Source: an uncultured Dysosmobacter sp. (GTDB lineage: Bacteria; Bacillota; Clostridia; Oscillospirales; Oscillospiraceae). From it: a DNA stretch of 64,000 bases. The notes under the pieces are model-generated. The model worked only from the letters and a program-made list of their open reading frames with translations. It was not told where the DNA came from and made no database searches. A program made the translations under genes and the position numbers. The stretch's first letter is position 1. Every line of letters starts with the position of its first letter. The DNA lies in contig NZ_CANRMB010000014.1 in the NCBI RefSeq assembly GCF_947631635.1, positions 1 to 64,000 on the forward strand, read 5' to 3'. This document shows, in pieces, positions 335-53,515 of this stretch.

Positions 335-378
335 AAAAAAAGACAGGGCTGTGCAGCGCATCATGCGCTGTACAGCCC
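335..378 (-). terminator. Intrinsic terminator A, fused to conserved element A
   Basis: A 15-bp stem with a 3-nt loop (arms 346-360 and 364-378, one A.C mismatch) is followed on the minus strand by seven U. It lies 34 bp before the start of the fibre gene. The base of its stem is the GGGGC end of the upstream conserved 38-nt element. Confidence 0.85.
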
Positions 379-412
379 CGATTGGCCTTCCCACCGCCCA
401 ATTGCGGCAGGG
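375..412 (-). ncRNA. Conserved pseudoknot-capable element, copy A
   Basis: This is the first of three nearly identical 38-nt elements in the late operon (others at 11430-11467 and 21530-21567). On the minus strand, CCUGCCGC pairs with GCGGUGGG around an AAUUGG loop. The loop's AUUGG can pair with CCAAU four nt downstream, an H-type pseudoknot. This copy differs from the others by one C-to-U change, which turns a G-C pair into G-U. It lies between the Ig-domain baseplate gene and the fibre gene and runs straight into terminator A. Confidence 0.7.
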
Positions 413-504
413 ACGTTATTGATTGATGGTATTTTACCACAGCGGGGCTGAAATGACAACCCCGTTTTGCTTCTCTAAAAAATTCAGTGCGCACCATCCG
501 CCGC

Positions 505-3500
505 TCAGCTTCCCGGCCTTTCCGTCTGTGTGGCATCCACAAAGTCCAGCACAGATGTGCAATTCACGACCATTTCTTCCGTGCCCGCCAGCGGTCTGGA
601 AAATCCCGTCACCAGATGACGCTCCGTGGGTGCGCCCTCCTTGTCCGGCCGGCGGATCTCCACCAGGCAGTTTTCCCGGATGTGGAAGATCTGTGCGGTT
701 CTGATTGAGACGGATTTCTGCAGCACGGTATTCCGCTTCAGCGTGTAGGCCGCGAATTCCCGGCACTGGGAGTCCGCGTAATAGCTGGGTGCGCTTTTCC
801 GCAGAGTACGTCGGCCCAGAGAGCTGTAAATGCTCGTGTCGCTCCGCGGGTCCATATTCGTTGCCCTGCCGAAGGGGATGCTCCCATCGTCCAGCGCCTG
901 TCCTTCAACGATGATGTCGTTGTAGACTTTGGTCATCTTGGTGGAATAAGTTGCCCCCAAAAACTGCCGCTCCGTGGGAGAAAAAGTCCACAGCACCGGC
1001 TTGGTGGTGTCCAAGATATCATCGTCTCCGGCGTCCAGCCGCAGATGTCCGGTCTGATCATAGCCAATCCATCCCACCAGCATCGTGTTCATCTCCAACA
1101 TCACGTCCGCGTAGGTCCCGCCGCCGCTGTCACAGCGGTAGGTATAGGGGGATGACAGCACGGACTCGACCGTGCCGTCCTGAAGCGTCACAGTCTTTCC
1201 GTTCCAATAATCGGAGAAGATGGGCGGAACATTGTCCACAGGATATCCGTTTCCCCGGTCCAGCTTCAGCAGGGATGATATCGTCATAAGAATATTGGTC
1301 CCAAGAGGCACCTCATAGATCCCCTCCAGATTCCCAAAAAGCGTTCCGTCCAGATATGCCCATTTATCCAAAAGTTGATAGGTCACTGTCCGCTGCCCTG
1401 GCTGAAAGGTCTCTTCCGGGTCACTCACATAAAAAACGCCCTGCGGCAGATAGAATTCATCTCCGTTGGAGAGCAGTATTCCCTCCATAAGGCGGATCTG
1501 CTGCCCAAACCAGATCTTCCCCACCGCGAAATCGTAAGCGCGGTCCAGATTGCTCAGCGTCACCGTGGCCCGCCGCCTCTGCCCGTTCTGCAAATTGACT
1601 TCCAGCGTCCCCTCCTGGATAAAGGCCCGGCTCCGCGGATTCCGTTGGTTATTGTCCAGACTGAACGCCACCGAACCGTCCGGCTGAAGGAAATCCAGGC
1701 GGCACAGCTTTTGGAAGTTTCCCTGCCGCAGCATCTCCAAATAGAGTGCCCATTTCTCAGATGGCGAAAGCCTGGTCTCTATAACGGTGATCTCCGCCGT
1801 ATTGCTCTGCGCGGAGCGGGATGACCCCCGCAGTGTATTGGTCGCCGCAACATAAAACCGTGTGACGCCCACAATCACAGTAGATGGTGTGTATACCGCA
1901 TCCGTGGCGCCGGGAATTGCCGTAAATTCCTCGCTATTCGGCAGCGCCCTGTACCACTGGTATGTAATGGTCCCTCCGTCCGCCACGCCCGCGCTTCCGT
2001 CCATCCGAAGCGCTGCGGCGGCATAGCGGTAAGCGGACGAGCGCAGCTGTGCCGAAAACACCGGCACCTGTGCCGCCCGAATATAGAGCACTGCGGTGCT
2101 GCTGTATCCCTCCGCCGCAGAGGTCCCCACTTGGTTCACCGCTGCCGCCCGGTAAAAGAAGGTCCCCTCCGCTTCGGTCGGCGGCGTATAAGTGCCTCCA
2201 GTTGCCCCCGGGATATCCTCCCATTCCCCGGCAGATGTCCTCCTCTGCCAGCGGATAGCAACAGTTCCTCGGGCCGCTTCGGCGGCGGCATACAGCGCAT
2301 CTGCCGGATCATTTTCCAAATACTCCGCGGATTCCGGATGCACGGTGAATATGGGTGCCTCCGCTCCATAAACCACAATGACTGCGCCCTCCAGCACAGC
2401 GCTTGCCGTAGAGGTGCCAACGGTATTGACCGCTGTCACAGAGTAAAGAAAGCGTCCTGCCTCTGTAGTCGGCGGGACGTATGCCGCCGACGTAGCGCCG
2501 GGGATCGCCATGCCGTTCTGATACCACTGGTAAGAAACGGTGCCCCGTTCCACCTTCGCTGTGCCGTCCAGGGCCGCCGCAGTGTCTCCGCACTCATATT
2601 CCGCGCTGGAGAGCGCTCCAACGAACACCGGCGCTTTTGCGCCGTATATCGTGATTGTGGCGGTCCCGCTCTGGGCGCTCTCCCGCATGTCTCCCACGAC
2701 ATTGGTTGCGACCACATAATACTGGTGGACTCCAGCCTCTGCGCTCGGTGGGCTGAAAAGGGCCTCCGTCGCTCCCGGGATGGCCTGTCCATCTTCATAC
2801 CACTGATAAGTGACGGTCCCGTAAGATGCCGCCGCTGTCCCGTTCAGCGCCGCCGTCACATCTCCGCAGTCATATGCGGCGTCTTGCAGCTCCGCAGCAA
2901 AGGCAGGGACCTCCGCCACATAGACCGTGATGATTGCAGCCTCGGATATGGATGCGGCGGAGTCGATGCCCACCCGGTTTTCCGCCGCACAGCGGTAGTG
3001 CGTAACGCCTCCCTCATCGGTAGGCGGCAGATATTCCAGGCCGTCAGCCCCGGCGATATCCTCCCAGGTCTCCCCGTCCGCAGACTTCTGCCACTGGTAG
3101 ACGATTGTGCCATAGGGTGCCGAAGCCTCCACCGACAGCTCCGTGGCCGCCGTGTCCCGGATATACCCGGCGGAAACCGGCTGTCTGGAAAACACAGGGG
3201 CCGCCGCACCCACAACATTGATCTCGGCTGTCTCACTGGTGGCACTTGCCTGATACAACGTATTTTCCGCCACCGGATTCAGGTCTCCCGCCGGATATAG
3301 GGAATCCGCCGGTGTCAGGCCATTGGGATACCCATTGGTGTTGGTCACAATGACCCGGTAATAGGAAACACCGACGGTCTCCGATCCCGGAACATATGCC
3401 GCGCCGTCAGCCCCGGCGATATCCTCCCAGGTCTCCCCATCCGCCGACTTCTGCCACTGATAAGACAGGGTTCCGCCGTCGCTCACCTGGGCCGCGCTGT

Positions 3501-3585
3501 CCAGGGCGGGAATCGGATCTCCAATGCCATATACGCCGCCGGTCAGCGGCGTCAAAAAACTCGGACTCTGCGCGCTTGTGATCAC
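505..3585 (-). CDS. Baseplate/tail protein with six Ig-like repeats
   Basis: This 1026-aa protein starts at a GTG preceded by GAGGCGGC. Residues from about 7 to 600 hold six related modules of roughly 90-100 aa. Each has an APVF-like start, a central SYQW(Y/Q) strand, a GAT..YVPP turn and an Y.V.A.N.VG strand, the hallmark of Ig-like or FN3-like beta sandwiches in phage tails. The last 420 aa form a different domain that contains patterns such as SNLDRAYDF and LPQGVFYVSDPEET, resembling phage baseplate or antireceptor proteins. It follows the distal tail gene. Ig modules in such proteins usually bind host surface glycans or decorate the particle. The exact baseplate role is inferred from position. 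Confidence 0.75.
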   Translation of the reverse strand: MITSAQSPSFLTPLTGGVYGIGDPIPALDSAAQVSDGGTLSYQWQKSADGETWEDIAGADGAAYVPGSETVGVSYYRVIVTNTNGYPNGLTPADSLYPAGDLNPVAENTLYQASATSETAEINVVGAAAPVFSRQPVSAGYIRDTAATELSVEASAPYGTIVYQWQKSADGETWEDIAGADGLEYLPPTDEGGVTHYRCAAENRVGIDSAASISEAAIITVYVAEVPAFAAELQDAAYDCGDVTAALNGTAAASYGTVTYQWYEDGQAIPGATEALFSPPSAEAGVHQYYVVATNVVGDMRESAQSGTATITIYGAKAPVFVGALSSAEYECGDTAAALDGTAKVERGTVSYQWYQNGMAIPGATSAAYVPPTTEAGRFLYSVTAVNTVGTSTASAVLEGAVIVVYGAEAPIFTVHPESAEYLENDPADALYAAAEAARGTVAIRWQRRTSAGEWEDIPGATGGTYTPPTEAEGTFFYRAAAVNQVGTSAAEGYSSTAVLYIRAAQVPVFSAQLRSSAYRYAAAALRMDGSAGVADGGTITYQWYRALPNSEEFTAIPGATDAVYTPSTVIVGVTRFYVAATNTLRGSSRSAQSNTAEITVIETRLSPSEKWALYLEMLRQGNFQKLCRLDFLQPDGSVAFSLDNNQRNPRSRAFIQEGTLEVNLQNGQRRRATVTLSNLDRAYDFAVGKIWFGQQIRLMEGILLSNGDEFYLPQGVFYVSDPEETFQPGQRTVTYQLLDKWAYLDGTLFGNLEGIYEVPLGTNILMTISSLLKLDRGNGYPVDNVPPIFSDYWNGKTVTLQDGTVESVLSSPYTYRCDSGGGTYADVMLEMNTMLVGWIGYDQTGHLRLDAGDDDILDTTKPVLWTFSPTERQFLGATYSTKMTKVYNDIIVEGQALDDGSIPFGRATNMDPRSDTSIYSSLGRRTLRKSAPSYYADSQCREFAAYTLKRNTVLQKSVSIRTAQIFHIRENCLVEIRRPDKEGAPTERHLVTGFSRPLAGTEEMVVNCTSVLDFVDATQTERPGS

Positions 3586-11312: not shown

Positions 11313-11398
11313 GCGGCACCTCTCTTTCACGTGAAACTTCCTCTGTGTGGCGCACAGGAAAGCCCTGTTGGTTTTCCTCTACGCCGCATCAAAATGAG

Positions 11399-11433
11399 AA
11401 AAAGGGCTGATATCCCCGAAGGAATATCAGCCC
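11399..11433 (-). terminator. Intrinsic terminator B, fused to conserved element B
   Basis: A 10-bp perfect stem (GGGCUGAUAU with AUAUCAGCCC) encloses UCCUUCGGGG, followed by five U on the minus strand. The stem sequence differs from those of terminators A and C except for its GGGC base, which comes from the conserved element. It lies between the tail tube gene and the gene before the tape measure. Confidence 0.88.
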
Positions 11434-11467
11434 CGATTGGCCTTCCCGCCGCCCAATTGCGGCAGGG
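11430..11467 (-). ncRNA. Conserved pseudoknot-capable element, copy B
   Basis: This is identical over 38 nt to copy C and differs by one base from copy A. It begins 48 nt after the stop codon of the tail tube gene and ends in the GGGGC that starts terminator B. The stem CCUGCCGC/GCGGCGGG and the loop contact AUUGG/CCAAU are both intact. The preceding GCCCU could alternatively pair with the terminal GGGGC, which would break the base of the terminator. Confidence 0.72.
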
Positions 11468-11514
11468 CATCTATTGTATTTCCCCAACTCGAACGTTCAA
11501 GCGGCCATGACATC

Positions 11515-12594
11515 TCAGGCAACGCTGACATTGCAGGTGGTGGAGAATTCCCTGCCGTCTGCCGTCAGCTTGATAATCAGCTCCGTATCCCCGACGGCCT
11601 TGCCGGTGATAACGCCCGCCGCGCTGACCTCCGCCGTATTGGTGTCCACGATTTGATAGGTCAGTTTGGTATAGTCAGGCTGAATCAGCTGGTCATTGTC
11701 CATCACCAGCTTCACAGGGCACTGGACCGTCGCGTTGACGCCGACATTGATTCCGCCGCCGATCACGACAAGGCCCGCCACGCCCTGCATATCTCCGCTG
11801 ACGGGCACCAGCACCTGATAGGCCAGTTTCGGCTGTGCCGCAGTGCTGCCGCAGTCCAGGCCGTTTCCACACGCCTCGTCATAGCTCAGCGCCGTGCCGT
11901 CCATAACGGTGGTGGCAGGGTTCGTCTGGTCTCCGGTGGTGGAGACGTTGCCGCCGAACTGCATTCTGGGGATGGTGGTGTACAGGTATCCGTACAGGCT
12001 TCCCATCATGGCATCGGGCGCACCGTCCTTGGTGTAAACAGGCATCTTCATCATCCAGCGCACCACAGAGGGGGCAAACATGGTGTTTACGGCCATCCAC
12101 TTCGCATCCGGCATGTGGTAGTAATAATGGACACAGTATTTTACACCGTCCTCAGCTGCAAATCCCTGCACTTCCCGGGTCTTGGGGTCAATGGTATATC
12201 CCTTACCGCTCTTGTTGATGCGGCACTCGATGTTGCAGCTGCCATAGGGTGCGCAGGGCTCCTGGCTAACGGTCAGCTTGCCTCCCTGCGCCTCCACAAC
12301 TTCATCGATCTCCGTGATGCCGTTGTAGGCCACATTGGTTCCAACCTGCAATGCTCTCCCCTCCAGGGAGAAATCCGCGGCTGTGGCCTTCACATCCAGT
12401 TTGGAGGTGTCCGGGATCTGGATGACCGTGGGATTGCCGATTCCGGCGTGGATATCGCCCAGATTGACGCTGGACTCCACACCGCTGGTTTGGAGTTTGT
12501 TGGAATAGTAGAGGACATCGCCAGTCTTGATGTCAAAGGCATACGCCTCATAGGTTCCCTTCACAAACAGGTTTTGGTTGTTCAGATTTACCAT
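11515..12594 (-). CDS. Major tail tube protein with C-terminal Ig-like (BIG_2) domain
   Basis: This 359-aa protein lies just before the chaperone slot and tape measure, as expected for the tail tube subunit. The first 280 aa are beta-rich (for example YEAYAFDIKTGDVLYYSN and a long GG-rich segment). The last 80 aa show the BIG_2 bacterial Ig pattern: NTAEVSAAGVITGKAVGD followed by TELIIKLT. Such a C-terminal Ig domain is known on several siphovirus tube proteins. The ATG at 12594 and a GTG at 12606 are both possible starts behind AGAGGAG; ATG is preferred. Confidence 0.75.
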   Translation of the reverse strand: MVNLNNQNLFVKGTYEAYAFDIKTGDVLYYSNKLQTSGVESSVNLGDIHAGIGNPTVIQIPDTSKLDVKATAADFSLEGRALQVGTNVAYNGITEIDEVVEAQGGKLTVSQEPCAPYGSCNIECRINKSGKGYTIDPKTREVQGFAAEDGVKYCVHYYYHMPDAKWMAVNTMFAPSVVRWMMKMPVYTKDGAPDAMMGSLYGYLYTTIPRMQFGGNVSTTGDQTNPATTVMDGTALSYDEACGNGLDCGSTAAQPKLAYQVLVPVSGDMQGVAGLVVIGGGINVGVNATVQCPVKLVMDNDQLIQPDYTKLTYQIVDTNTAEVSAAGVITGKAVGDTELIIKLTADGREFSTTCNVSVA

Positions 12595-12676
12595 TTCTTG
12601 ATTCACTCCTCTTGATTTAATAATTTGTGGGGCAAAATGCCGGAATACTTACCTAATTGGGTTTTACAAAACCTTT

Positions 12677-20113: not shown

Positions 20114-21481
20114 TCAGTTGTTGATGCTGCTCAGCAGGGCATCAATGCCGTCGGGCTCCTGCTGTCCACCCAGATTCTTCTGCTCCCAGATGAATCCGGC
20201 CTTCTGGCTGGACTTGCGCAGCTCGTCCAGCTTTGTCTGGGCCTCGCCCACGGCGGCCATCAGGCGGGTAACGGCCTCTTTGTCTCCGGTCCAGTTGCCG
20301 GATGCATCTACGCAGGCATTGAACCTGCCGGCCTTGCAGTCGGCCACAATGGTGTCGGCCACCTTGGAATCGATCTTCTCACTCTCTCCGCGGTTGGCGT
20401 TCACAGCCAGCAGTCTGGACTTTACCGCTTCCTCGGCGGCCAGTGCCCGGCGGCTGTTCTCCTGGTTCTGCATGGCGGTAATGGTGCTCTTCGCCGTGTT
20501 CAGTTCGCTGTTTGCCTGTGTCAGGCCCGCCTGGGCAGCGCTCAGCTGGGCGGACAGGGTGGTAAACATGTCGCCGGTGTCCACTGTCAGTGCGGTCCCA
20601 TCCTCAAACTGATGCGTGGCGGACAGACAGACGGGTTTCACCCGGTCCGCATACACATGTTCCATAGGATCATCCTCAGAGAACTGATATGTGCAGACGG
20701 TTCCATCCTCGGCCAGCAGCAGCACATGGCGGCCGGTTTCGCAGCAGCTGAGAACACGGTATCCCTCAAACAGTTTGCCGAGCTTTTCCAGCAGTTTCTT
20801 GTTCATAGGTCTCTTCACTCCTTCTTTGACTTTTGTTTGCGGCTTTTCCAATGCGGCCGCACGGAGCTTCGCGGTCTCAAACTCCTGCTCCATGGCGGCC
20901 AGCGCACGGATGTGCGCATTTGGCACAGCGGGGTCCACCCGGTCGCCCAGGATAGTCACACCAATTCCGGTCCAGGTGTTGTAGATCTCTCTTTCTCCCT
21001 CGGTCTCGGTGGTCTCCTGGTAGGTGTTGGTCTCAGCGGACACATCCATGCGGCCCTGCTCCGCGATCTTGTCCACCAATTCCTTTGCGTAAAAGCGCCA
21101 GAGTTTTCCCCGCGCTGTAACCCATTGATATCCGTTCTTCTCCTGGACAAACACGTCATCGGGATTCTCGGAAATGGAACCGACGATGCGCTCCGCCGTA
21201 TTCCCCATAAAACTGAAATACGCTTCGCCCTTGCTGTCCCGCCGTTTTTCCATGTTGTGGCTGTCGCCCACCTGCCCAAGCACATAGGCGCACAGGATCG
21301 GGCAGCCCACAAATGTATGGGCATATGTCTCCAGATTGCGGAACTCCCACGTTCCGTTCTGCACAGGCCCGGACCGCAGAATATCGATCTCCACGTTGTA
21401 GTTCTTATAGCTGTCCTGACCCAGCACCCGCAGATGACAGCCAAATGTCCGTCCATGCAGGATTTCTTCCTTCTCACCCAT
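20114..21481 (-). CDS. Capsid assembly protein, probable protease-scaffold fusion
   Basis: The first 200 residues of this 455-aa protein look like a prohead protease-type domain (IDILRSGPVQNGTWEFRNLE, then LCAYVLGQVGDSHNMEKR with a candidate catalytic His, then SFMGNTAERIVGSI). A linker and a scaffold-like part follow, with a long Ala/Gln-rich coiled coil near residues 305-375 (LSAQLSAAQAGLTQANSE). This architecture and the slot between portal and capsid genes fit a fused maturation protease and scaffold. I could not assign the full catalytic triad. GGAGGTG lies upstream of the start, directly after terminator C. Confidence 0.5.
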   Translation of the reverse strand: MGEKEEILHGRTFGCHLRVLGQDSYKNYNVEIDILRSGPVQNGTWEFRNLETYAHTFVGCPILCAYVLGQVGDSHNMEKRRDSKGEAYFSFMGNTAERIVGSISENPDDVFVQEKNGYQWVTARGKLWRFYAKELVDKIAEQGRMDVSAETNTYQETTETEGEREIYNTWTGIGVTILGDRVDPAVPNAHIRALAAMEQEFETAKLRAAALEKPQTKVKEGVKRPMNKKLLEKLGKLFEGYRVLSCCETGRHVLLLAEDGTVCTYQFSEDDPMEHVYADRVKPVCLSATHQFEDGTALTVDTGDMFTTLSAQLSAAQAGLTQANSELNTAKSTITAMQNQENSRRALAAEEAVKSRLLAVNANRGESEKIDSKVADTIVADCKAGRFNACVDASGNWTGDKEAVTRLMAAVGEAQTKLDELRKSSQKAGFIWEQKNLGGQQEPDGIDALLSSINN

Positions 21482-21494
21482 TCATTTCACCTCC

Positions 21495-21534
21495 AAAAAG
21501 ATAAAGGGGCAGAGTGATCCCCTCACTCTGCCCC
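21495..21534 (-). terminator. Intrinsic terminator C, fused to conserved element C
   Basis: A 12-bp perfect stem (GGGGCAGAGUGA with UCACUCUGCCCC) with a GGGGA loop is followed by UUUAUCUUUUU on the minus strand. The U tract runs into the ribosome binding site of the capsid assembly gene. The stem is unrelated to those of terminators A and B above the shared GGGGC base. Confidence 0.9.
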
Positions 21535-21567
21535 GATTGGCCTTCCCGCCGCCCAATTGCGGCAGGG
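21530..21567 (-). ncRNA. Conserved pseudoknot-capable element, copy C
   Basis: This starts 16 nt after the portal stop codon and is identical to copy B over the 38-nt core, including the AAUUGG loop and the downstream CCAAU. As in the other copies, its final GGGGC forms the foot of an intrinsic terminator. It lies between portal and capsid assembly genes. Confidence 0.72.
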
Positions 21568-21582
21568 CATGTTCCTTCATTT

Positions 21583-23391
21583 TTATGCGTCCTTGGCATC
21601 CTCTGTTCCATCGGACACCACATTCTCCATCGCCGTCTCAGGCCGCCCCCCCTCCTTCTGTTCCAGGGGCGGGGCCTCCGTTCCCGCCGTTTTCTGCTTC
21701 ACTGGCGGCAGGTCCGGGTCCTTTTTGCTCATGTTGAACGCCGACACCAGCGGCAGTCGCAGATCCATTACACCGCACTTCTCAACCACACGGCTCATGG
21801 AGATATCGTCCAGCGTGGAGCGCTCCATCAGCGCGTTGTAAACGAACAGGTCCGGCAGCATCCCGGATGCCATGGTTTTCTGCACCTGCGCCAGCATCTT
21901 CTCGTCCGACTGGATATCCCCAAACATACGGAACTTCCAGGTGTAGTCCAGATTCAGCCGCCGGTAGATACTCTCCATCATTTTGGAAAATGTCCAGTAG
22001 ATGCACTGGCAGTACCGGGCCTCCAGCTTCGCCGAGAAATTCACCACGCCCGCCCGGGGATTGTCGTTGACGGGGATCAGCCCCGCCAGGCCTGATTTCT
22101 CCACGGCATAGGCATAGCCCTTGGCGGAAATGTCTGTGGCGCTGGGGGCTTCCGCCAGCTGGTGCAGTTTCATGTTCTCCACGGGTGCCGTGAAGAAACC
22201 GATGCCGCTGGTGTTGGTTGCCGCCAGCATGTCATACCAGTAGGCCTCAAACATCAGCCGCCCACCCTCGCTGAGCATGTATTTGTCCTCCAGGTCTTTC
22301 GCGTCGGTCGATTTCTGATACGGGATCTCGCCAGTCATCACAGACACCAATGGGTTTTGCACCAACTCCAGCTGCACCTGCTCATACTGAGCGATCTGCA
22401 GCATAGCTAGAAACAGCCCCGTCATGATGGGCGCCGCGTTGGCGTTAGTATCATCCACGCCAAAGGTCCACACCCGGTCCGGCGGCAGCGTCACCCAATA
22501 TGCCCAGCGTCCGTTCTGCACATAGCAGTCCGGTTTTCCCGGTGCGCCCTTTGCTGCCAGCGAGCGGAATTTCTTCATATCGAGCCCCACCTGGCGGCCA
22601 TCCGCCGTCCGGTTCCCAACGCCGAACAGAATATGTTCGCCATAGGCGTTCTTTACCGTCGGCTCCGTGGTCAATATGCTGTTAAAATCATCCAAATACG
22701 GTGTCAGCAGGTCGCCAAACTGCTCCGCTGTCACGCCTGGGCGAAATAGATAGAACAGATTGAAAGCCACGGTGTAGCCGCTCTCACTGTTCATCCCCAC
22801 GATTTTGATCCAGTCGCTGGGCAGCGGCTCTACAAAGGCGGCGTTCACCTGGTTGTGGCTCTTGTCCACCTCTATGCGGGGAGTATAGCACACTTTTCCT
22901 TCCTGGATGGCCCGCCCCGCGATCTCATGGGCCTTGGCGCTTGGTTGGATGGCGTCGTTCAGCTTCTCCACAAGCGCCCACTCCCGCCGCAGCTCCTTCT
23001 TCCCCGCATCCCCGGCTTCCAAATAGGAAGGATAGGCATAGTAGCGGTATGTCATGATGTCCGTATAGGTCTTGCGTATCTTCAAAAGCGGATACGCTGT
23101 GCTTTCCAGGGCGTGGGAGACCTGTCTGAGCGGCAATTCATTCTCCCCAGGAGCACGAATCATCTGTGCTACCTGATTTTTGGAATAGTCCGCCGGCATA
23201 GAGTTGATGGCCTTTACTCTCCGGTTCTGGATGTAAGGGTCCGCTGTGAAGTTCTCACGGATCCTGCCGGAGGAGGCACGGACATAAGCCGCCATGATAT
23301 TTTCCATCGGCATATCGCCAAAGGTTTTTGATAAGCTCCGAAAGCGCTGATACAACGCCCGGTAGCCTTTTCCGCCGCTCTCGATCCTCAT
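21583..23391 (-). CDS. Portal protein
   Basis: At about 602 aa from ATG 23391, behind AAGGAG, this is the second gene after the large terminase, as expected for a portal. Helical N-terminal and stem regions and a C-terminal acidic tail rich in Pro and Glu fit the family (usual range 400-650 aa). Segments such as WTFGVDDTNANAAPIMTGL and SFNMSKKDPD-type C-terminal helices are visible. No single catalytic motif exists for portals, so the assignment combines size, order and general architecture. It would form the dodecameric DNA entry channel. Confidence 0.8.
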   Translation of the reverse strand: MRIESGGKGYRALYQRFRSLSKTFGDMPMENIMAAYVRASSGRIRENFTADPYIQNRRVKAINSMPADYSKNQVAQMIRAPGENELPLRQVSHALESTAYPLLKIRKTYTDIMTYRYYAYPSYLEAGDAGKKELRREWALVEKLNDAIQPSAKAHEIAGRAIQEGKVCYTPRIEVDKSHNQVNAAFVEPLPSDWIKIVGMNSESGYTVAFNLFYLFRPGVTAEQFGDLLTPYLDDFNSILTTEPTVKNAYGEHILFGVGNRTADGRQVGLDMKKFRSLAAKGAPGKPDCYVQNGRWAYWVTLPPDRVWTFGVDDTNANAAPIMTGLFLAMLQIAQYEQVQLELVQNPLVSVMTGEIPYQKSTDAKDLEDKYMLSEGGRLMFEAYWYDMLAATNTSGIGFFTAPVENMKLHQLAEAPSATDISAKGYAYAVEKSGLAGLIPVNDNPRAGVVNFSAKLEARYCQCIYWTFSKMMESIYRRLNLDYTWKFRMFGDIQSDEKMLAQVQKTMASGMLPDLFVYNALMERSTLDDISMSRVVEKCGVMDLRLPLVSAFNMSKKDPDLPPVKQKTAGTEAPPLEQKEGGRPETAMENVVSDGTEDAKDA

Positions 23392-23401
23392 TCCAAACTC
23401 C

Positions 23402-23740
23402 TTATGCCGGTGCTTCCGCTCCCAGTTTTTCACGTTCCGCCATCAATTCCCGTTCAAACGCATCCACAAAAGACTCCATGCCTGCCGCTGCTGTCTGCTC
23501 ATGCTTTTCGGCAAACGCCCGCATGATAGAGAGATTGCATTCCCGCAGCCACTCCGTTTCTTTTTCAGAGAGCCGAATATCCGGTGCGACCGCCTTCACA
23601 CCCTCCGGCATTTTCCGCCATGGTCTCCGGTAAATCAGGATATGTGTGGGAGTGACCATGAAAAAGCGCTCCCGCTCCGCTCTTTGCAGTCCTTCCTGAG
23701 ACACCTTCATGGCATACAGCTTATAACGGATTTTCTTCAT
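23402..23740 (-). CDS. Small protein between terminase and portal, unknown
   Basis: This 112-aa protein (MKKIRYKLYAMKVSQEGLQR) has an N-terminal basic beta-like part and a C-terminal charged helix (EFMAEREKL-type, Glu and Arg rich). It lies ten bases after the terminase gene and ten before the portal start. It probably belongs to the packaging module. No family is recognised. Confidence 0.55.
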   Translation of the reverse strand: MKKIRYKLYAMKVSQEGLQRAERERFFMVTPTHILIYRRPWRKMPEGVKAVAPDIRLSEKETEWLRECNLSIMRAFAEKHEQTAAAGMESFVDAFERELMAEREKLGAEAPA

Positions 23741-25706: not shown

Positions 25707-26801
25707 CTATGGTCCTGCTGCTCCAGGTTCCCCCCGTTCCCTGTCCGAAAGGGGGAACAGCCCCAGTTTTGCCTTGATGTCCCTCTCCCACTGCGGGGCT
25801 TCCTCCTCAAACTCCCCAGACATGGCATCAAACCGCATCGTCTCCGGTAATTCCGTCTCGATCCCAAGCCCCATATTTTTCCGCATGGTGTTATTGATGC
25901 ACAGCAGCATCTGGTCTGCGGCATCCTTGGAGTGGGGGTAATGCGGACGCTCTCCCTGAAGCTTTTTCAGCAATTCCGAATATCCCAGCAGTTTTCCGTT
26001 TTTCAGAAATCCCTGCTTTTCCAACTTGTCCACAATGGTGTCGACCCGCAGGTCTTCCACTGGCTTCTCGTCTTTTCGCCGCATCAGATTACTGGCCTTG
26101 ATGGTTTCTGCTATGTCCAAATATTTTTTGGCATTGGCGGCACTGTCTTTAGAGTTACAGGATAGCTCTATGGAATACCGCAGCAGATTTTTGCAGATCT
26201 CCCGCAGATTGTATTCCATCATGGCGTCAATGCCCGCCGCCTCATAGGGCTTACTCTGGATAGCATACAGCCGGTCCAGCTCCGTATACTGCTCCGACGT
26301 AAATCCATCTATCGTTCCCCACACCTTGCGCTGGCGCTGGCTCCCCTGCTGGGTATCCCGGATATTCTTTTCCAGCTGGATTGCCTTTGCCACCTCGCCG
26401 CTGGACAGATCTCCGCCAAACAGTTTCAGGATATCCACGATTCCGTCAAAAAACGTGGAGGGTTCTCCGTTGTCCTGTTCCAGGCGGCCGCTCCGCCGCA
26501 GGTTCTCCAGATAGGCCAGCCAGGGTGTGGAGACATCATCCATATTGGGGATCTCCAGGGGGGCCATAGGGATGTTGAATGCCACACAGCAATAAAACAG
26601 TGCCAGGTGCGGCGTGGTCTTTTGGGCCAGCTCCTCAAAATAGCTCTCCTGGCAGTCCCTGCAGTAATGGACAAAGCGGGTGTCCTTGTACCAGTCCTCT
26701 GCCGCAGGCACCCCTGTAAACTCGTCCAGTTCTTTCCCGCAGTTTACACAGGTGATGACCGCGCTTTCCTGCTGTCCAATTGTCCGAGAACTTCCAGTCA
26801 T
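25707..26801 (-). CDS. Zinc-ribbon protein upstream of terL (possible small terminase)
   Basis: This 364-aa protein starts from ATG 26801 with GGGAG five bases upstream (MTGSSRTIGQQESAVITC); a TTG at 26813 is less likely. Residues near 18-50 hold CVNCGKEL and HYCRDC, a zinc ribbon. The rest is helical. Its position directly before terL suggests a small terminase or packaging recognition subunit, but it is longer than usual (100-200 aa) and has no clear HTH. It overlaps the end of the 58-aa gene upstream. Confidence 0.5.
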   Translation of the reverse strand: MTGSSRTIGQQESAVITCVNCGKELDEFTGVPAAEDWYKDTRFVHYCRDCQESYFEELAQKTTPHLALFYCCVAFNIPMAPLEIPNMDDVSTPWLAYLENLRRSGRLEQDNGEPSTFFDGIVDILKLFGGDLSSGEVAKAIQLEKNIRDTQQGSQRQRKVWGTIDGFTSEQYTELDRLYAIQSKPYEAAGIDAMMEYNLREICKNLLRYSIELSCNSKDSAANAKKYLDIAETIKASNLMRRKDEKPVEDLRVDTIVDKLEKQGFLKNGKLLGYSELLKKLQGERPHYPHSKDAADQMLLCINNTMRKNMGLGIETELPETMRFDAMSGEFEEEAPQWERDIKAKLGLFPLSDRERGEPGAAGP

Positions 26802-26813
26802 ATGAACTCCCAA

Positions 26814-26990
26814 CTATTCCCTCTCTGCCGGCCGTGTTTTTCCGTACACATAACTCGACTGTCCGAACACAAGTTCTTTCTGCACTTTCAGCACTTTGAT
26901 TCCATCAGGCGTCATGCGGACTTCTGCGGTCTCTCCACGTTGTACGATGCGCATAATCGCATTCCAGGCCGCCTTGTCCCTCTGATCCAT
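26814..26990 (-). CDS. Short first gene of the late operon
   Basis: This 58-aa protein starts MDQRDKAAWNAIMRIVQRGE and ends in a basic-acidic tail. The ATG at 26990 has CAGGGAGGC seven bases upstream, right after the U tract of the leader terminator. It is therefore the first gene transcribed when the terminator is read through. It has an N-terminal helix followed by short beta strands. No family is recognised. Confidence 0.6.
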   Translation of the reverse strand: MDQRDKAAWNAIMRIVQRGETAEVRMTPDGIKVLKVQKELVFGQSSYVYGKTRPAERE

Positions 26991-27003: not shown

Positions 27004-27061
27004 ACAAAAAAATCGGCACGAATTCCGCTCCAAAAATTTTTGGCCGGAAATCGTGCCGATT
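27004..27061 (-). terminator. Leader terminator at the entry of the late operon
   Basis: On the minus strand, AAUCGGCACGA followed by UUUCCGGCC pairs with a GGAGCGGAA/UUCGUGCCGAUU arm across an AAAAAUUUUU loop, followed by seven U. It lies 25 nt downstream of a promoter's -10 box and 14 nt upstream of the first late gene's start codon. It would stop late transcription unless it is suppressed. Confidence 0.85.
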
Positions 27062-27117: not shown

Positions 27118-27306
27118 CTATTTTACAAAATGATTTTCTGCTCCGCATGTTTCACATGTAATATCCAGGGTTATCGCCGCATTTAGTGCCGAAAAAGATA
27201 CTTCCCTTCCCCTGTGCCTGACCTTGATCGTCCCGTCTTTTTCCTTGGCAATGACCTTCCCGCAACCGCGGCACAGCAACGGTTTCCATCCTGTATCAGG
27301 GATCAT
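27118..27306 (-). CDS. Com-like zinc ribbon protein
   Basis: In this 62-aa protein, LCRGCGKVIAKEKDG and ITCETCGAENHF form a four-cysteine knuckle pair around a basic beta segment. The layout resembles the Com family of phage zinc fingers, in which the Mu member activates translation of the mom mRNA. That is a resemblance, not proof. It overlaps the preceding gene by 11 bases and is the last gene before the late promoter. GGGAGG precedes the start. Confidence 0.6.
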   Translation of the reverse strand: MIPDTGWKPLLCRGCGKVIAKEKDGTIKVRHRGREVSFSALNAAITLDITCETCGAENHFVK

Positions 27307-27867: not shown

Positions 27868-28645
27868 GACTCTCCTCTAAAATCTGGTCGATGTCCACAC
27901 ATTCGTTGATCTGGAGTGATGGAAATATCTTGCAGTGCCGCAGTGACAGGCTTTCTAGCACATCTCCAGTACAGGTCAGGTACACAACAACAGAAGTGTA
28001 GTATTCATCTCCATAGCGCCTTACTTCCACAGTTCCAATCGGCCACATCCGCCGCAGGGCCTTTGCGTCCTGGATGTCCTCCTCTGTCCACCGCGGCGGC
28101 TTTATGACTTTCTTCGGGTGCTGGATGGCATAGGCAATGGAGTTGCCGATCTTGTCATGCCGTTTGCCGCCATCCACCCGCTCAATCAGTCCACCCCCCG
28201 TGATGTACAGCTCACCTGTGATTCCCTTGGGATAATCGATGCGGAACCGTTCCCCCACATGGACTCCCAACAACTGGCACAGCTTCGGCTCCGCTGCCTC
28301 TTCCAAGGTCATCCGCCCCCGTTTCGGAATAACCTTCATTGCCTGTACCTGAGAGGGATTCTTCTTCAATTCGTCCTTTACCAAAAGCGTCTCATAGCCG
28401 ACTCCACAATCTGGAATGCGGATTTCTGAAGTTTTCAATATTCCATTGCGCCCGGTAATGCGGAACATATAGATTTTCACGCCAGTCTCGAAGCAGTTCG
28501 CGCTCAGTCTACTCGCTGCAAAGTTTTCACATATAAATCCGTCGCTCACCGCCCGCCGGATGAAATCAGCCGTCTGCTGACTCCCATAACATACGATAAC
28601 CGTTTCATACGGTTGGACCTTAGTCCAATCAATTCGAGTTCTCAT
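27836..28645 (-). CDS. Phage accessory protein, unknown
   Basis: This 269-aa protein has a GGGAG site before the ATG, which overlaps the end of the methyltransferase gene by 17 bases. Residues 15-80 (PYETVIVCYGSQQTADFIRR) look alpha/beta. A later segment (WTEEDIQDAKALRRMWPIGT) is helical and charged. Coupling to the methyltransferase suggests joint expression. I do not recognise a domain. Confidence 0.5.
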   Translation of the reverse strand: MRTRIDWTKVQPYETVIVCYGSQQTADFIRRAVSDGFICENFAASRLSANCFETGVKIYMFRITGRNGILKTSEIRIPDCGVGYETLLVKDELKKNPSQVQAMKVIPKRGRMTLEEAAEPKLCQLLGVHVGERFRIDYPKGITGELYITGGGLIERVDGGKRHDKIGNSIAYAIQHPKKVIKPPRWTEEDIQDAKALRRMWPIGTVEVRRYGDEYYTSVVVYLTCTGDVLESLSLRHCKIFPSLQINECVDIDQILEESHGQQKENKSQ

Positions 28646-29480
28646 ACAAGATATCTCCCTTTATGTCCATCATCCTGATTTGCTGAAAAGGCGGTTCATA
28701 GTTCATCCAAATGCACTCCTCCGCTTTTTCCCCAGAGGTAATCGCCGCTCTCACACTGTCCTTCCGCCATCCTTTCAGTGCGTTGTCATAGAGTTCACAG
28801 GTATAGCCGGACAAAATAATCTTTGCCTGACTGTTGACCGCTATCTCCAACATGCGCTTGTGGGTGGCATCGTCCATCTCATGGCGGTACAGCCGGCCAG
28901 AGCGGCGGGTCCCCATCACATAGGGCGGGTCCAGGTACATCAGCACCTCCGGTTTGTCATACCGTTCCATAAGCCGCAGTGCATCCATATGCTCGATCTG
29001 CACCAGATTTGTGGCGCTCCCCCGGAGCCGTTCCGCCGCAATCCCCAGCGCACCTGGAATACCATGCCAGGAGCACGCAGTCCCACCAACTTTTTCGCTC
29101 TTATGGTTGCGCCATCCACTTTTCCCATCTCTCTTAGTCCCAATGGCTTGACTCGTCTTTACCATAAAGCGCCGTGCTTTCTCCAAAGGCTCCACGCAGG
29201 GTTCAAACGCCCGGTCATACTCCTCTCTGCTAAAGGGTGTCAGCTCTATTGCCCGTGACAGCGCCTCCGGCTGCTCCCGCAGGACCTGAAACAGATTCAC
29301 GATATCGCCGTCCAAATCGTTGATCGTCTCAACAGCACCAGGATTTTTTGTAAAAAACACCGCGGCACTTCCGGCAAAAGGTTCCAGATAGACCATCTTC
29401 TCATAGCCCTCCGGGAAATGGGATACGATCCACTCTGCAATGGCCCACTTACTCCCCGGATACCGCATGATCGACCGCAT
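28629..29480 (-). CDS. D12-class N6-adenine DNA methyltransferase
   Basis: This 283-aa Dam-like enzyme would transfer methyl from AdoMet to adenine N6. YPGSKW at residues 7-12 and EPFAGSAA at 33-40 form the AdoMet-binding motifs, and DPPY at 184-187 is the catalytic motif of the class. The ATG at 29480 has AAGGAG upstream. It overlaps neighbours on both sides. No cognate restriction gene is nearby, so it is an orphan, probably protecting phage DNA or regulating expression. Confidence 0.9.
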   Translation of the reverse strand: MRSIMRYPGSKWAIAEWIVSHFPEGYEKMVYLEPFAGSAAVFFTKNPGAVETINDLDGDIVNLFQVLREQPEALSRAIELTPFSREEYDRAFEPCVEPLEKARRFMVKTSQAIGTKRDGKSGWRNHKSEKVGGTACSWHGIPGALGIAAERLRGSATNLVQIEHMDALRLMERYDKPEVLMYLDPPYVMGTRRSGRLYRHEMDDATHKRMLEIAVNSQAKIILSGYTCELYDNALKGWRKDSVRAAITSGEKAEECIWMNYEPPFQQIRMMDIKGDILYENSN

Positions 29481-29778
29481 CTGCCATCTCCTTTCCCCAC
29501 TCCTCCAGAACTTCCCGGCAGCAGACCGGCCCTGGCTGCTTCTCGCAGTACGCACGGGCCGGGCAAGTGGGGCATATGATCTTCTCACGAAGCAGCAGCC
29601 GCATCACCTGATCATGCATGTCCTCCAGCAGCAGCTTTTCCATATTGGTCCGCCGGCGCACCTGCGGTTCCGCAGCCCTTGCCGCTCCAACCGTGGAGGG
29701 ACGTTCTGCCTGTTTCTCCCCCAAGCGCGTCTCAACTTCCTGCCCGCATACTGGGCAAATTCGTTTTCCTTCTTTCAT
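29449..29778 (-). CDS. Small two-zinc-site protein
   Basis: This 109-aa protein starts MKEGKRICPVCGQEVETRLG, behind GAGGAG. The N-terminal CPVC and a C-terminal cluster (IICPTCPARAYCEKQ, PVCC) could bind metal. The middle is an Arg-rich linker and helix. It overlaps the methyltransferase start. Function unknown. Confidence 0.55.
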   Translation of the reverse strand: MKEGKRICPVCGQEVETRLGEKQAERPSTVGAARAAEPQVRRRTNMEKLLLEDMHDQVMRLLLREKIICPTCPARAYCEKQPGPVCCREVLEEWGKEMADAVDHAVSGE

Positions 29779-52396: not shown

Positions 52397-53515
52397 CTAT
52401 GCACAAGAAATGTTATCTGTCATCATGCCCCAAATAAAGCATGCCATCTCTCTTGCCACGGCAGTTTTTGCGATGTTCGCCTTAGAACGCATTGCAATTT
52501 TAAAGTATTTTTTCTTCAACCGTGCGTTCGCTTTATCCGCATAGGCAATCGTTAAGGAGTCGCATTTTGCCTGCCGCGCCTTGAGAGCCGCTGATTTCCC
52601 GCTTTTTGTTGCGCATCGGCCAAATACCTGAGCCGTTTCCACAAGCAGTTTGCGAAGATGTGAATTGCCAGCCTTTGTAATTCCGGTATATTGCTGTTTG
52701 TCACCACTGGAACATTCTCCCGGCACCAGTCCGAGATAGGACGCAAACTGCTGTGCGGTCGCAAACCGCCGGAAGTCTCCTACCTCAACGCAGAAAGACA
52801 GTGCCGTATGCGCAGCAATGCCACGGAAGCACCCCAGCTTTTCTACCTTTTGCCGGTAGGGTTCTGCCTGTGAGAGTTCATTGATCCGCGTATCATACAT
52901 ATCCACCTGCTCCCGCAGTTGGTAGTAACGAATCAGGTACTCCTGCAATACCTCGGATAAAATATCATTGCCGAAATTCAAATTTGAAAGCCACTCCAAA
53001 TGCTTGTTTGTCCAATAGCTCTTACCATCATGGACCTTGCCGTGTCGGATGCAGAATGCAATGATCTGCTGCTTGACGCGAACCAGTGCGCTGTTTGCAT
53101 CATCACGCATACGGATATACTCTTTCACTGCGTCATCTATCTCCGTTGGAATATACACGGAGCTGTAAGTATGAAATGCAAGGCACTTGCTGATTAGGCG
53201 GGCGTCTCTGCGATCCGTCTTGATACGCTTGCCAGGCGTTGTCATCATCGTGGTCGGTGCAAGGATCACGCAGTCGATACCATGTGCGTGCAGTTGATGA
53301 TACAGTGAGTAACCCAGGCATCCTGCCTCGTAACCACAGACAATACGGCACTCTTTGTTCTGTTGCTTTTCAATGCGAGCAAGGTATTTCAGAATATTCT
53401 TCGCATCCGGCTCAACCTGAACTTCGGCGAAAAATCGGTCATCCTCCATGCTGTAGCAGCAAAGTGTGTAATTTGTGGTATGGACATCCATTCCTACATA
53501 GATTATACTTGTCAT
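52397..53515 (-). CDS. IS110-family transposase (DEDD recombinase)
   Basis: This 372-aa protein has an N-terminal RuvC-like domain with acidic residues D10 (YVGMDVH), E63 (GYEAGCLGY), D101 and D104 (KTDRRDARL). The C-terminal Tnp domain carries ASYLGLVPGECSSGDKQQ with the conserved Ser of the family. The length is normal and the frame intact, so it may be active. The start has GAGGAGTCATT upstream. Confidence 0.93.
   Translation of the reverse strand: MTSIIYVGMDVHTTNYTLCCYSMEDDRFFAEVQVEPDAKNILKYLARIEKQQNKECRIVCGYEAGCLGYSLYHQLHAHGIDCVILAPTTMMTTPGKRIKTDRRDARLISKCLAFHTYSSVYIPTEIDDAVKEYIRMRDDANSALVRVKQQIIAFCIRHGKVHDGKSYWTNKHLEWLSNLNFGNDILSEVLQEYLIRYYQLREQVDMYDTRINELSQAEPYRQKVEKLGCFRGIAAHTALSFCVEVGDFRRFATAQQFASYLGLVPGECSSGDKQQYTGITKAGNSHLRKLLVETAQVFGRCATKSGKSAALKARQAKCDSLTIAYADKANARLKKKYFKIAMRSKANIAKTAVAREMACFIWGMMTDNISCA

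What the first reader, a model, noticed from the sequence alone, without database searches (positions are those of the whole stretch)
21495..21567. Three copies of a conserved pseudoknot-terminator RNA element in the late operon
The same 38-nt sequence occurs at 375-412, 11430-11467 and 21530-21567, always on the transcribed minus strand, always in a gap between late genes (after the Ig baseplate gene, tail tube and portal) and always fused to an intrinsic terminator. The core folds as an 8-bp hairpin whose AUUGG loop can pair with a downstream CCAAU. The only difference among copies preserves pairing (G-C to G-U). In contrast, the three terminator stems share no sequence above the GGGC base yet all pair well, so structure is kept while sequence changes. 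A GCCCU just 5' of the core in copies B and C could also pair with the GGGGC foot of the terminator, an antiterminator-like alternative. Because late genes downstream must still be expressed, I infer a regulated terminator or a put-like RNA that modifies RNA polymerase; an RNA-stability or protein-binding role is also possible. The 4-nt crossing loop is tight for an 8-bp stem, so the pseudoknot may be partial.
Basis: partly seen in the sequence, partly recalled or inferred. Interest (0 to 1): 0.85.

Follow-up and report, generated by a model that had tools for sequence, protein, structure and literature searches.

The report
Phage RNA switch with tiny protein
Three copies of a known but unexplained RNA (gut-2) sit in front of transcription stop signals in a gut-bacterial prophage and look like switches that a tiny phage protein flips to let later genes be read.

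Summary
The three copies are real (none in 100 shuffles), each fused to an intrinsic terminator. They belong to the orphan Rfam family gut-2, RF02990 (copy A scores 39.6, cut-off 39.8). The pseudoknot fails. Across relatives the element is two tandem hairpins with matching hexaloops (RANNGG). The loops vary together as copies, not complements (position 3 identical in 82 of 98). In a protein-found set, pseudoknot pairing is 40% and hairpin 2 is 99.4%. Hairpin 2 shares its 3' arm with the terminator in 60 of 60 elements, so the two exclude each other, as in ANTAR antiterminators. In 44 of 60 RNA-found elements a gene for an undescribed basic protein domain of about 40 residues lies within 150 nt upstream. 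Searching with the protein alone finds the RNA downstream on the same strand in 48 of 54 viral loci. The window's prophage encodes one such protein (26814-26990, minus), upstream of the elements. Best reading: an RNA-protein antitermination system staging phage genes. Direct binding and direction of control are inferred, not shown.

The parts
390..411 (-). copy A hairpin 1 (8 bp, hexaloop AAUUGG at 398-403)
   Evidence: sequence, cmscan and cmsearch, fold
374..387 (-). copy A hairpin 2 (GGCC/GGCU, hexaloop AAUCGG at 378-383)
335..378 (-). copy A intrinsic terminator (stem 346-378, U tract about 335-345); its 5' arm includes the 3' arm of hairpin 2
431..459 (-). copy A promoter-like sequence TTGTCA-17-TAAAAT (consensus match only; not enriched over the family)
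11445..11466 (-). copy B hairpin 1 (hexaloop AAUUGG at 11453-11458)
11429..11442 (-). copy B hairpin 2 (hexaloop AAUCGG at 11433-11438)
11391..11433 (-). copy B intrinsic terminator (stem 11404-11433 and U tract)
11473..11500 (-). copy B promoter-like sequence TTGAAC-16-TACAAT (consensus match only)
21545..21566 (-). copy C hairpin 1 (hexaloop AAUUGG at 21553-21558)
21529..21542 (-). copy C hairpin 2 (3-bp stem, hexaloop AAUCGG at 21533-21538)
21495..21534 (-). copy C intrinsic terminator (stem 21506-21534, U tract 21495-21505), directly before the ribosome-binding site of the gene 20114-21481
26814..26990 (-). 58-aa basic protein of the element-linked family (candidate trans-acting partner)
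   Evidence: HMM built without the window: E 8.3e-7 among 50,557 ORFs; coordinates, pI 9.6; model helix plus beta-hairpin
21583..23433 (-). portal protein, 5' of copy C
   Evidence: phrog_2739, E 7.3e-15
20114..21481 (-). gene directly 3' of copy C (phrog_3313, function unknown)
11515..12606 (-). virion structural protein, 5' of copy B
   Evidence: phrog_2729, E 3.5e-17
505..3585 (-). tail/Ig-type protein, 5' of copy A
   Evidence: phrog_1887, E 8.2e-37

Best explanation
Each copy is a conditional terminator. RNA polymerase transcribes hairpin 1, then hairpin 2, both showing the same kind of hexaloop (RANNGG). Hairpin 2 is weak and its 3' arm is also the 5' foot of the intrinsic terminator, so by default the terminator takes over and transcription stops. 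A tiny basic protein of the same mobile element (window 26814-26990, minus strand) binds the two loops, holds hairpin 2 closed and so lets polymerase pass into the next gene block. In the prophage this would stage late-gene expression at three checkpoints as the protein accumulates. Shown by sequence: the two-hairpin structure, its overlap with the terminator, concerted loop variation, and linkage with the protein gene. Inferred: direct binding, stoichiometry, antitermination (rather than enforced termination), and timing.
For: Covariation: 96.9% of 720 cells pair, 10 of 12 pairs change on both sides, control score 0.223 against 0.901. The protein-found set also has changes in an inner pair of hairpin 2 (CG to UA). 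Loop position 3 is the same letter in both loops in 82 of 98 (shuffled mean 36.4) and position 6 in 85 of 98 (mean 54.6). The terminator uses all four nt of hairpin 2's 3' arm in 60 of 60. Window energies: hairpin 2 -4.1 to -4.3, terminator -23.3 to -27.1 kcal/mol; the element alone folds as two hairpins in all three copies. A gene start with ribosome-binding site follows within 160 nt in 35 of 60 against 3 of 60 antisense. Linkage: 44 of 60 RNA-found elements have the protein domain within 150 nt upstream on the same strand; protein-first search gives the RNA in 48 of 54 viral loci, always same strand and downstream, against 2 weak matches in 843,597 bases of control loci. Host genomes: 7 of 8 gut-2 genomes have the protein. 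In 12 genomes with the protein but no gut-2 call, model R1 finds an element near it in 7. All 120 homologues held have pI above 8. Protein class tracks loop letter: U3 in 0 of 46 proline-class against 24 of 38 others; the window protein and loops fit this.
Against: No binding or expression data. G167 has a strong element (61.1 bits) but no detected protein gene, although its genome is listed as 97% complete. 14 of 60 RNA-found elements have no domain within 1,500 nt, among them the three window copies and the C37 copy. 12 of 386 gut-2-negative genomes in the order sample have the protein, and 4 of these 12 showed no element that I could see. The protein-loop association shrinks with clustering: p 0.0005 at 70% identity (33 clusters), 0.09 at 60% (20 clusters), none at 50% (2 clusters). 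No structural match supports RNA binding. The direction of control is inferred from the overlap alone.
Confidence: 0.62

Rival explanations
1. Same RNA-protein pair, opposite sign: the protein binds the hairpins and enforces termination or blocks antitermination, so the element is a feedback brake on the genes after the protein gene.
For: The protein gene is usually directly upstream of the element (44 of 60 within 150 nt), a layout that also suits negative feedback.
Against: The conserved hairpin 2 is incompatible with the terminator stem (60 of 60), and the terminator is already far more stable, so a helper for termination seems unnecessary. Nothing measured.
Confidence: 0.15
2. RNA-only element that acts on RNA polymerase in cis, like put of phage HK022; the protein is a passenger or an accessory.
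For: put RNAs are also two stem-loops (PMC9378689, passages). G167 carries the element without a detected protein gene.
Against: Protein-first searches recover the RNA in 48 of 54 loci; the loops vary in concert and with protein class. The element overlaps the terminator it would have to bypass.
Confidence: 0.08
3. The host's ANTAR regulator binds the two hexaloops.
For: Dual hexaloops with the second inside the terminator match the ANTAR layout (PMC3369931 and PMC8934654, passages). The host genome has one ANTAR gene, off the prophage.
Against: ANTAR loops need A1 and G4; here position 4 is C 27, U 24, G 5, A 3 in hairpin 1. ANTAR genes occur in 11 of 14 gut-2 genomes and 17 of 27 without; G167 (97% complete) has none.
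Confidence: 0.05
4. mRNA 3'-end or stability element (or small RNA, as Rfam types the family) without regulated read-through.
For: Rfam lists gut-2 as 'Gene; sRNA'. The element ends in a terminator and often follows a stop codon closely.
Against: Many copies stand inside runs of same-strand genes, with a ribosome-binding site just after the U tract (35 of 60); hairpin 2 competes with the terminator rather than adding to it.
Confidence: 0.08
5. The first reader's H-type pseudoknot fused to a terminator.
For: AUUGG and CCAAU are complementary in all three window copies.
Against: Three of its five pairs depart only by unpaired cells in A2 apart from one pair with a change on both sides; 70.2% of cells in A4 and 40.0% in the protein-found set pair; letters change the same way in both loops.
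Confidence: 0.02

Closest known systems
Rfam RF02990 (gut-2 RNA)
   Same: Copies B, C and the C37 copy score above its cut-off (44.5, 44.5, 43.1 against 39.8); copy A 39.6. Rfam's consensus already draws two hairpins.
   Different: Rfam types it as an sRNA and its 48-position model stops before the terminator; the terminator overlap, the matching loops and the linked protein are not part of that entry as seen.
ANTAR dual-hexaloop antiterminators (EutV/eut, NasR/nasF, AmiR)
   Same: Two small hairpins with hexaloops, second one overlapping an intrinsic terminator, several copies per regulon (passages of PMC3369931 and PMC8934654).
   Different: Loop consensus RANNGG instead of A1 and G4; linker 2-3 nt here against 5-12 nt in E. 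faecalis eut; linked protein is about 40-60 aa without an ANTAR hit; carried by phages and an integrative element.
put RNA of phage HK022
   Same: Two stem-loops in phage transcripts that counter termination (passages).
   Different: put is about 70 nt, near early promoters, needs no dedicated protein and acts at a distance; this element is at the terminator itself and is linked to a protein gene.
conAn bipartite antitermination of pLS20-type plasmids
   Same: A mobile element encodes both an RNA and a protein for antitermination (passages of PMC8955417, and PMC11658703).
   Different: conAn is placed once at the operon start; here the RNA recurs at terminators. A member of the protein family gave no tblastn match in 72,556 plasmid records. 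The original conAn paper was not held.
PHROG phrog_29211 (45 positions, unknown function)
   Same: Matches some of the protein family (L234 E 9e-15, L249 2.2e-8).
   Different: Does not match the window protein at E 0.1 (its best is phrog_24569, E 0.09); carries no function.

Membership tests
Rfam gut-2 (RF02990) | covariance-model score at or above 39.8 bits | tested here: met
   44.5 for copies B and C, 43.1 for C37; copy A is just below at 39.6
Rfam gut-2 (RF02990) | two tandem hairpins of the consensus structure | tested here: met
ANTAR target RNA | two tandem hexaloop hairpins, the second overlapping a terminator | tested here: met
   layout compared with passages
ANTAR target RNA | loop position 1 A and position 4 G in both loops | tested here: not met
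   position 4 is G in 5 of 59 first loops and 0 of 60 second loops
ANTAR target RNA | cognate ANTAR-domain protein linked to the element | tested here: not met
   ANTAR in 11 of 14 gut-2 genomes and 17 of 27 others; the linked protein has no Pfam family above cut-off
put RNA (HK022) | acts alone in cis on RNA polymerase, at a distance | not testable with these tools
   needs transcription assays; tight linkage with a protein gene speaks against it
conAn | protein homologous to ConAn1 | tested here: inconclusive
   P0005 gave no tblastn match in the plasmid collection; ConAn1 itself was not compared
H-type pseudoknot | loop-to-3' pairing conserved by compensatory change | tested here: not met
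   70.2% and 40.0% of cells paired
BglG/LicT-type RNA antiterminator | single RAT hairpin bound by a CAT-domain protein | not tested
   recalled family; no search made

The most novel reading that the evidence does not exclude
An undescribed family of about 40-60-residue basic phage proteins (helix plus beta-hairpin) founds a new class of sequence-specific hexaloop-binding antiterminators. Each protein class reads its own loop letter, and phages and integrative elements of gut Clostridia scatter the matching dual-hairpin switches through early and late operons to time gene blocks, which explains the orphan gut-2 RNA.
Probability: 0.55. Interest if true: 0.9.

Novelty: new variant of a known kind. 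Interest (0 to 1): 0.8.

Why it matters
gut-2 has been a catalogued RNA without a role (typed only as sRNA in Rfam). Pairing it with a specific tiny protein turns it into a testable two-part switch, suggests how phages of uncultured gut Clostridia order their genes, and adds a compact loop-reading protein that evolved the same logic as ANTAR regulators with a different loop code. A cultured phage carries both parts (Flavonifractor phage Chenonceau), so the idea can be tested.

Tried and rejected
Pseudoknot: my first count used a wrong register and was replaced; later sets reject it.

Host ANTAR as partner: not discriminating and wrong loop code.

A conserved larger phage protein as partner: all-against-all BLAST of ORFs from 19 gut-2 regions gave no family in more than 8 of 19; the small domain was missed there and only seen from upstream ORF ends.

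A promoter in front of every element: best promoter-like score averages 7.33 in 58 elements against 6.96 for shuffles; copies A and B look good, copy C poor, so I claim no general promoter.

Phage reference records: blastn with copy C found nothing. Stringent pattern found nothing. A loose pattern (capped) gave mostly unrelated loci, later used as controls.

Rows dropped: 11 pattern loci (L239, L241, L246, L256, L290-L296) were left out before alignment A4, because hairpin 1 had 6 or fewer of 8 pairs; L293 with 6 pairs is a borderline case. L010, L012, L013 and L014 were left out as repeats of L009 and L008. L247 was given to the model but not matched. L181/L043 (G278) was but missed E 0.1, so it is not in A4.

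Laboratory literature: searches; none of the held papers names gut-2 RNA or RF02990. The paper I recall as the source of gut-2 is not held.

Full report
Observation. The 38-nt core occurs three times in the window at the stated places, all minus strand, and not by chance (3 found, 0 in 100 shuffles). Each copy runs into an intrinsic terminator. Rfam identifies copies B and C as gut-2, RF02990 (44.5 bits each), and copy A just under the cut-off (39.6 against 39.8). The genome holds a fourth copy on contig C37 (43.1 bits), next to a gene matching a tail fibre family (phrog_1348).

Distribution. RF02990 matches 3 of 60 relatives, 8 of 394 genomes sampled from the order (5 of these over the cut-off), and model R1 2 of 391 sampled from the class; each count includes the window's own genome. 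One of 14 control genomes rings below the cut-off (Bacteroides ihuae). Viral scans gave further members; scan 26 was capped.

Structure. A seed of 15 ungapped members gave model R1. On the larger set A4 (82 matches, 61 distinct rows) the two-hairpin structure pairs in 96.9% of 720 cells, with both-side changes at 10 of 12 pairs and a covariation score of 0.901 against 0.223 in shuffles. Counted on 60 distinct cores: hairpin 1 454 of 476 cells, hairpin 2 232 of 232, pseudoknot 205 of 292. Two caveats. The viral patterns fixed the loop letters A2, G5, G6 and the inner C-G pairs of hairpin 2. An alignment fitted to a model also leans towards it. Neither pattern applied to the protein-found set A7 (below), where hairpin 2 pairs in 158 of 159 cells, including an inner pair that changes from CG to UA, and the pseudoknot in 80 of 200.

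Matching loops. Hairpin 1 and hairpin 2 carry the same kind of hexaloop. In 98 pooled distinct elements without gaps, A2 and G5 are invariant; position 3 is the same letter in both loops in 82 (shuffled mean 36.4, 0 of 5,000 shuffles as high) and position 6 in 85 (mean 54.6, 0 of 5,000). Relatedness inflates such figures. Still, same-letter change is the opposite of what pairing would give, and it suggests that one binding partner reads both loops.

Overlap with the terminator. In 60 of 60 distinct elements a hairpin followed by a U tract starts in the last loop letters or 3' arm of hairpin 2 and uses all four nt of that arm; the same lenient criteria accept 106 of 600 control GGGG sites. In the window copies the RNA up to hairpin 2 folds as two hairpins, hairpin 2 alone at -4.1 to -4.3 and the terminator at -23.3 to -27.1 kcal/mol. 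So termination is the expected default, and hairpin 2 would need help to win.

Position. A start codon with a ribosome-binding site follows within 160 nt in 35 of 60 elements, against 3 of 60 in the antisense direction. After copy C the U tract runs straight into the ribosome-binding site of gene 20114-21481, so that gene needs read-through unless an unseen promoter lies upstream. Contexts elsewhere include minor head protein to head protease (L010, L013), major head protein (G034, G376), tape measure (G072), early regions with UmuC-like polymerase or S24 repressor genes (L035, L012, L018, L038), and an integrative element with HsdR and relaxase genes (G167). It is therefore not confined to late operons.

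The linked protein. Upstream of many elements the last residues of a small ORF share a pattern, roughly AIEaiLxrGdrVEIxxxkDGxKVxxVkRe. An HMM of 22 such pieces, with no window sequence among them, finds a 58-residue protein in the window at 26814-26990, minus strand (E 8.3e-7 among 50,557 ORFs). It lies directly upstream of the packaging and portal genes and of the three elements; that these form one operon is inferred. In the listing none of the loosely matched viral loci L047-L160 falls below E 0.01. Pfam and NCBIfam have no family above cut-off; phrog_29211, of unknown function, matches some members. A protein search lists 510 homologues at E 0.001 among the 7,996 candidates scored, 120 shown, none with a Pfam domain; all 120 have pI above 8. 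AlphaFold2 gives helix 3-17 and strands 21-27 and 30-36 (mean pLDDT 79.4, pTM 0.52). A natural tandem copy in G071 models at 83.6 and 0.68. No known fold stands out.

Linkage tests. (i) RNA first: 46 of 60 distinct elements have the domain (E 0.1 or better) within 1,500 nt upstream on the same strand, 44 within 150 nt. (ii) Protein first, viral: 54 loci were found from the protein; R1 finds 49 elements in 48 of them, all on the protein's strand and downstream. Four more (L324, L335, L336, L362) show the element by eye; L331 and L334 do not. Control: 100 other viral loci, 843,597 bases, 2 weak matches; these loci are not matched for host. (iii) Genomes: in samples of 394 from the order, 7 of 8 gut-2 genomes also have the protein and 12 of the other 386 do. 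Three of the seven had contributed to the alignment; of the remaining five gut-2 genomes, four have it. (iv) Prediction: in the 12 protein-only genomes R1 finds an element on the same strand after the protein gene in 7 (E 0.074 or better) and one more is seen by eye (G392); four are negative or unclear. Several of these carry AGUC/GACU stems, a new compensated form of hairpin 2.

Protein-loop code. Among 84 protein-element pairs, proteins with an 'EIIP'-type proline go with G at loop position 3 (39 of 46, against 5 of 38 without it) and never with U (0 of 46, against 24 of 38). Clustering proteins weakens this: p 0.0005 with 33 clusters at 70% identity, 0.09 with 20 clusters at 60%, no test possible with 2 at 50%. 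The window protein lacks the proline and its loops have U, as the rule predicts.

Mechanism. The layout is that of ANTAR antitermination: dual hexaloops, the second inside the terminator, stabilised by a loop-binding protein (passages of PMC3369931 and PMC8934654). It is not an ANTAR target by sequence: position 4 is rarely G, and ANTAR genes are no commoner in gut-2 genomes beyond 11 of 14 against 17 of 27. I conclude that the tiny protein most likely binds both loops and lets polymerase pass. Binding, direction and timing are inferences. Evidence against: G167 has the RNA without a detected protein; 14 of 60 elements lack a nearby domain; some protein genes lack an element.

A test bed exists. 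Flavonifractor phage Chenonceau (ON453904.1) encodes the protein as WAK79802.1 and has an R1 element at record position 26222-26269 (E 3.7e-8), 1.5 kb downstream and shortly before the scaffold and major head genes.

Noticed in passing
window 27006-27060 (-): A strong intrinsic-terminator-like hairpin with a U tract lies directly upstream of the tiny protein gene; it is not matched by gut-2 or R1, so the gene itself may also be under termination control.
   Followed up: no
window 27121-27306 (-): A 62-aa protein with CxxC pairs just upstream; it resembles Com-type zinc proteins of Mu-like phages by recall only (listing).
   Followed up: no
G000:C37:30950-30996 (L003, L036): Fourth gut-2 copy of the genome, near a contig end and next to tail-fibre-like genes; no protein domain found near it, so the window's protein may serve it or its own gene lies past the contig end.
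   Followed up: partly
L316 (G071:C3), ORF 1126-1755: A natural protein with two tandem copies of the small domain after a cysteine-rich N-terminal part, as if built for two loops; the terminator seen after the near-identical copy in L305 has no obvious gut-2 element.
   Followed up: partly
L374 (ON453904.1): Cultured Flavonifractor phage Chenonceau carries both protein and element.
   Followed up: yes
window 52397-53515 (-): ORF whose relatives occur also in L036 and L182; looks like an IS110-type transposase by recall.
   Followed up: no
window 3025-3099 and 3388-3462: A 75-nt direct repeat, 89% identical, inside the tail/Ig-type gene 505-3585.
   Followed up: no
window 28629-29588 (-): Phage DNA methyltransferase (phrog_56, E 4.1e-60).
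   Followed up: no
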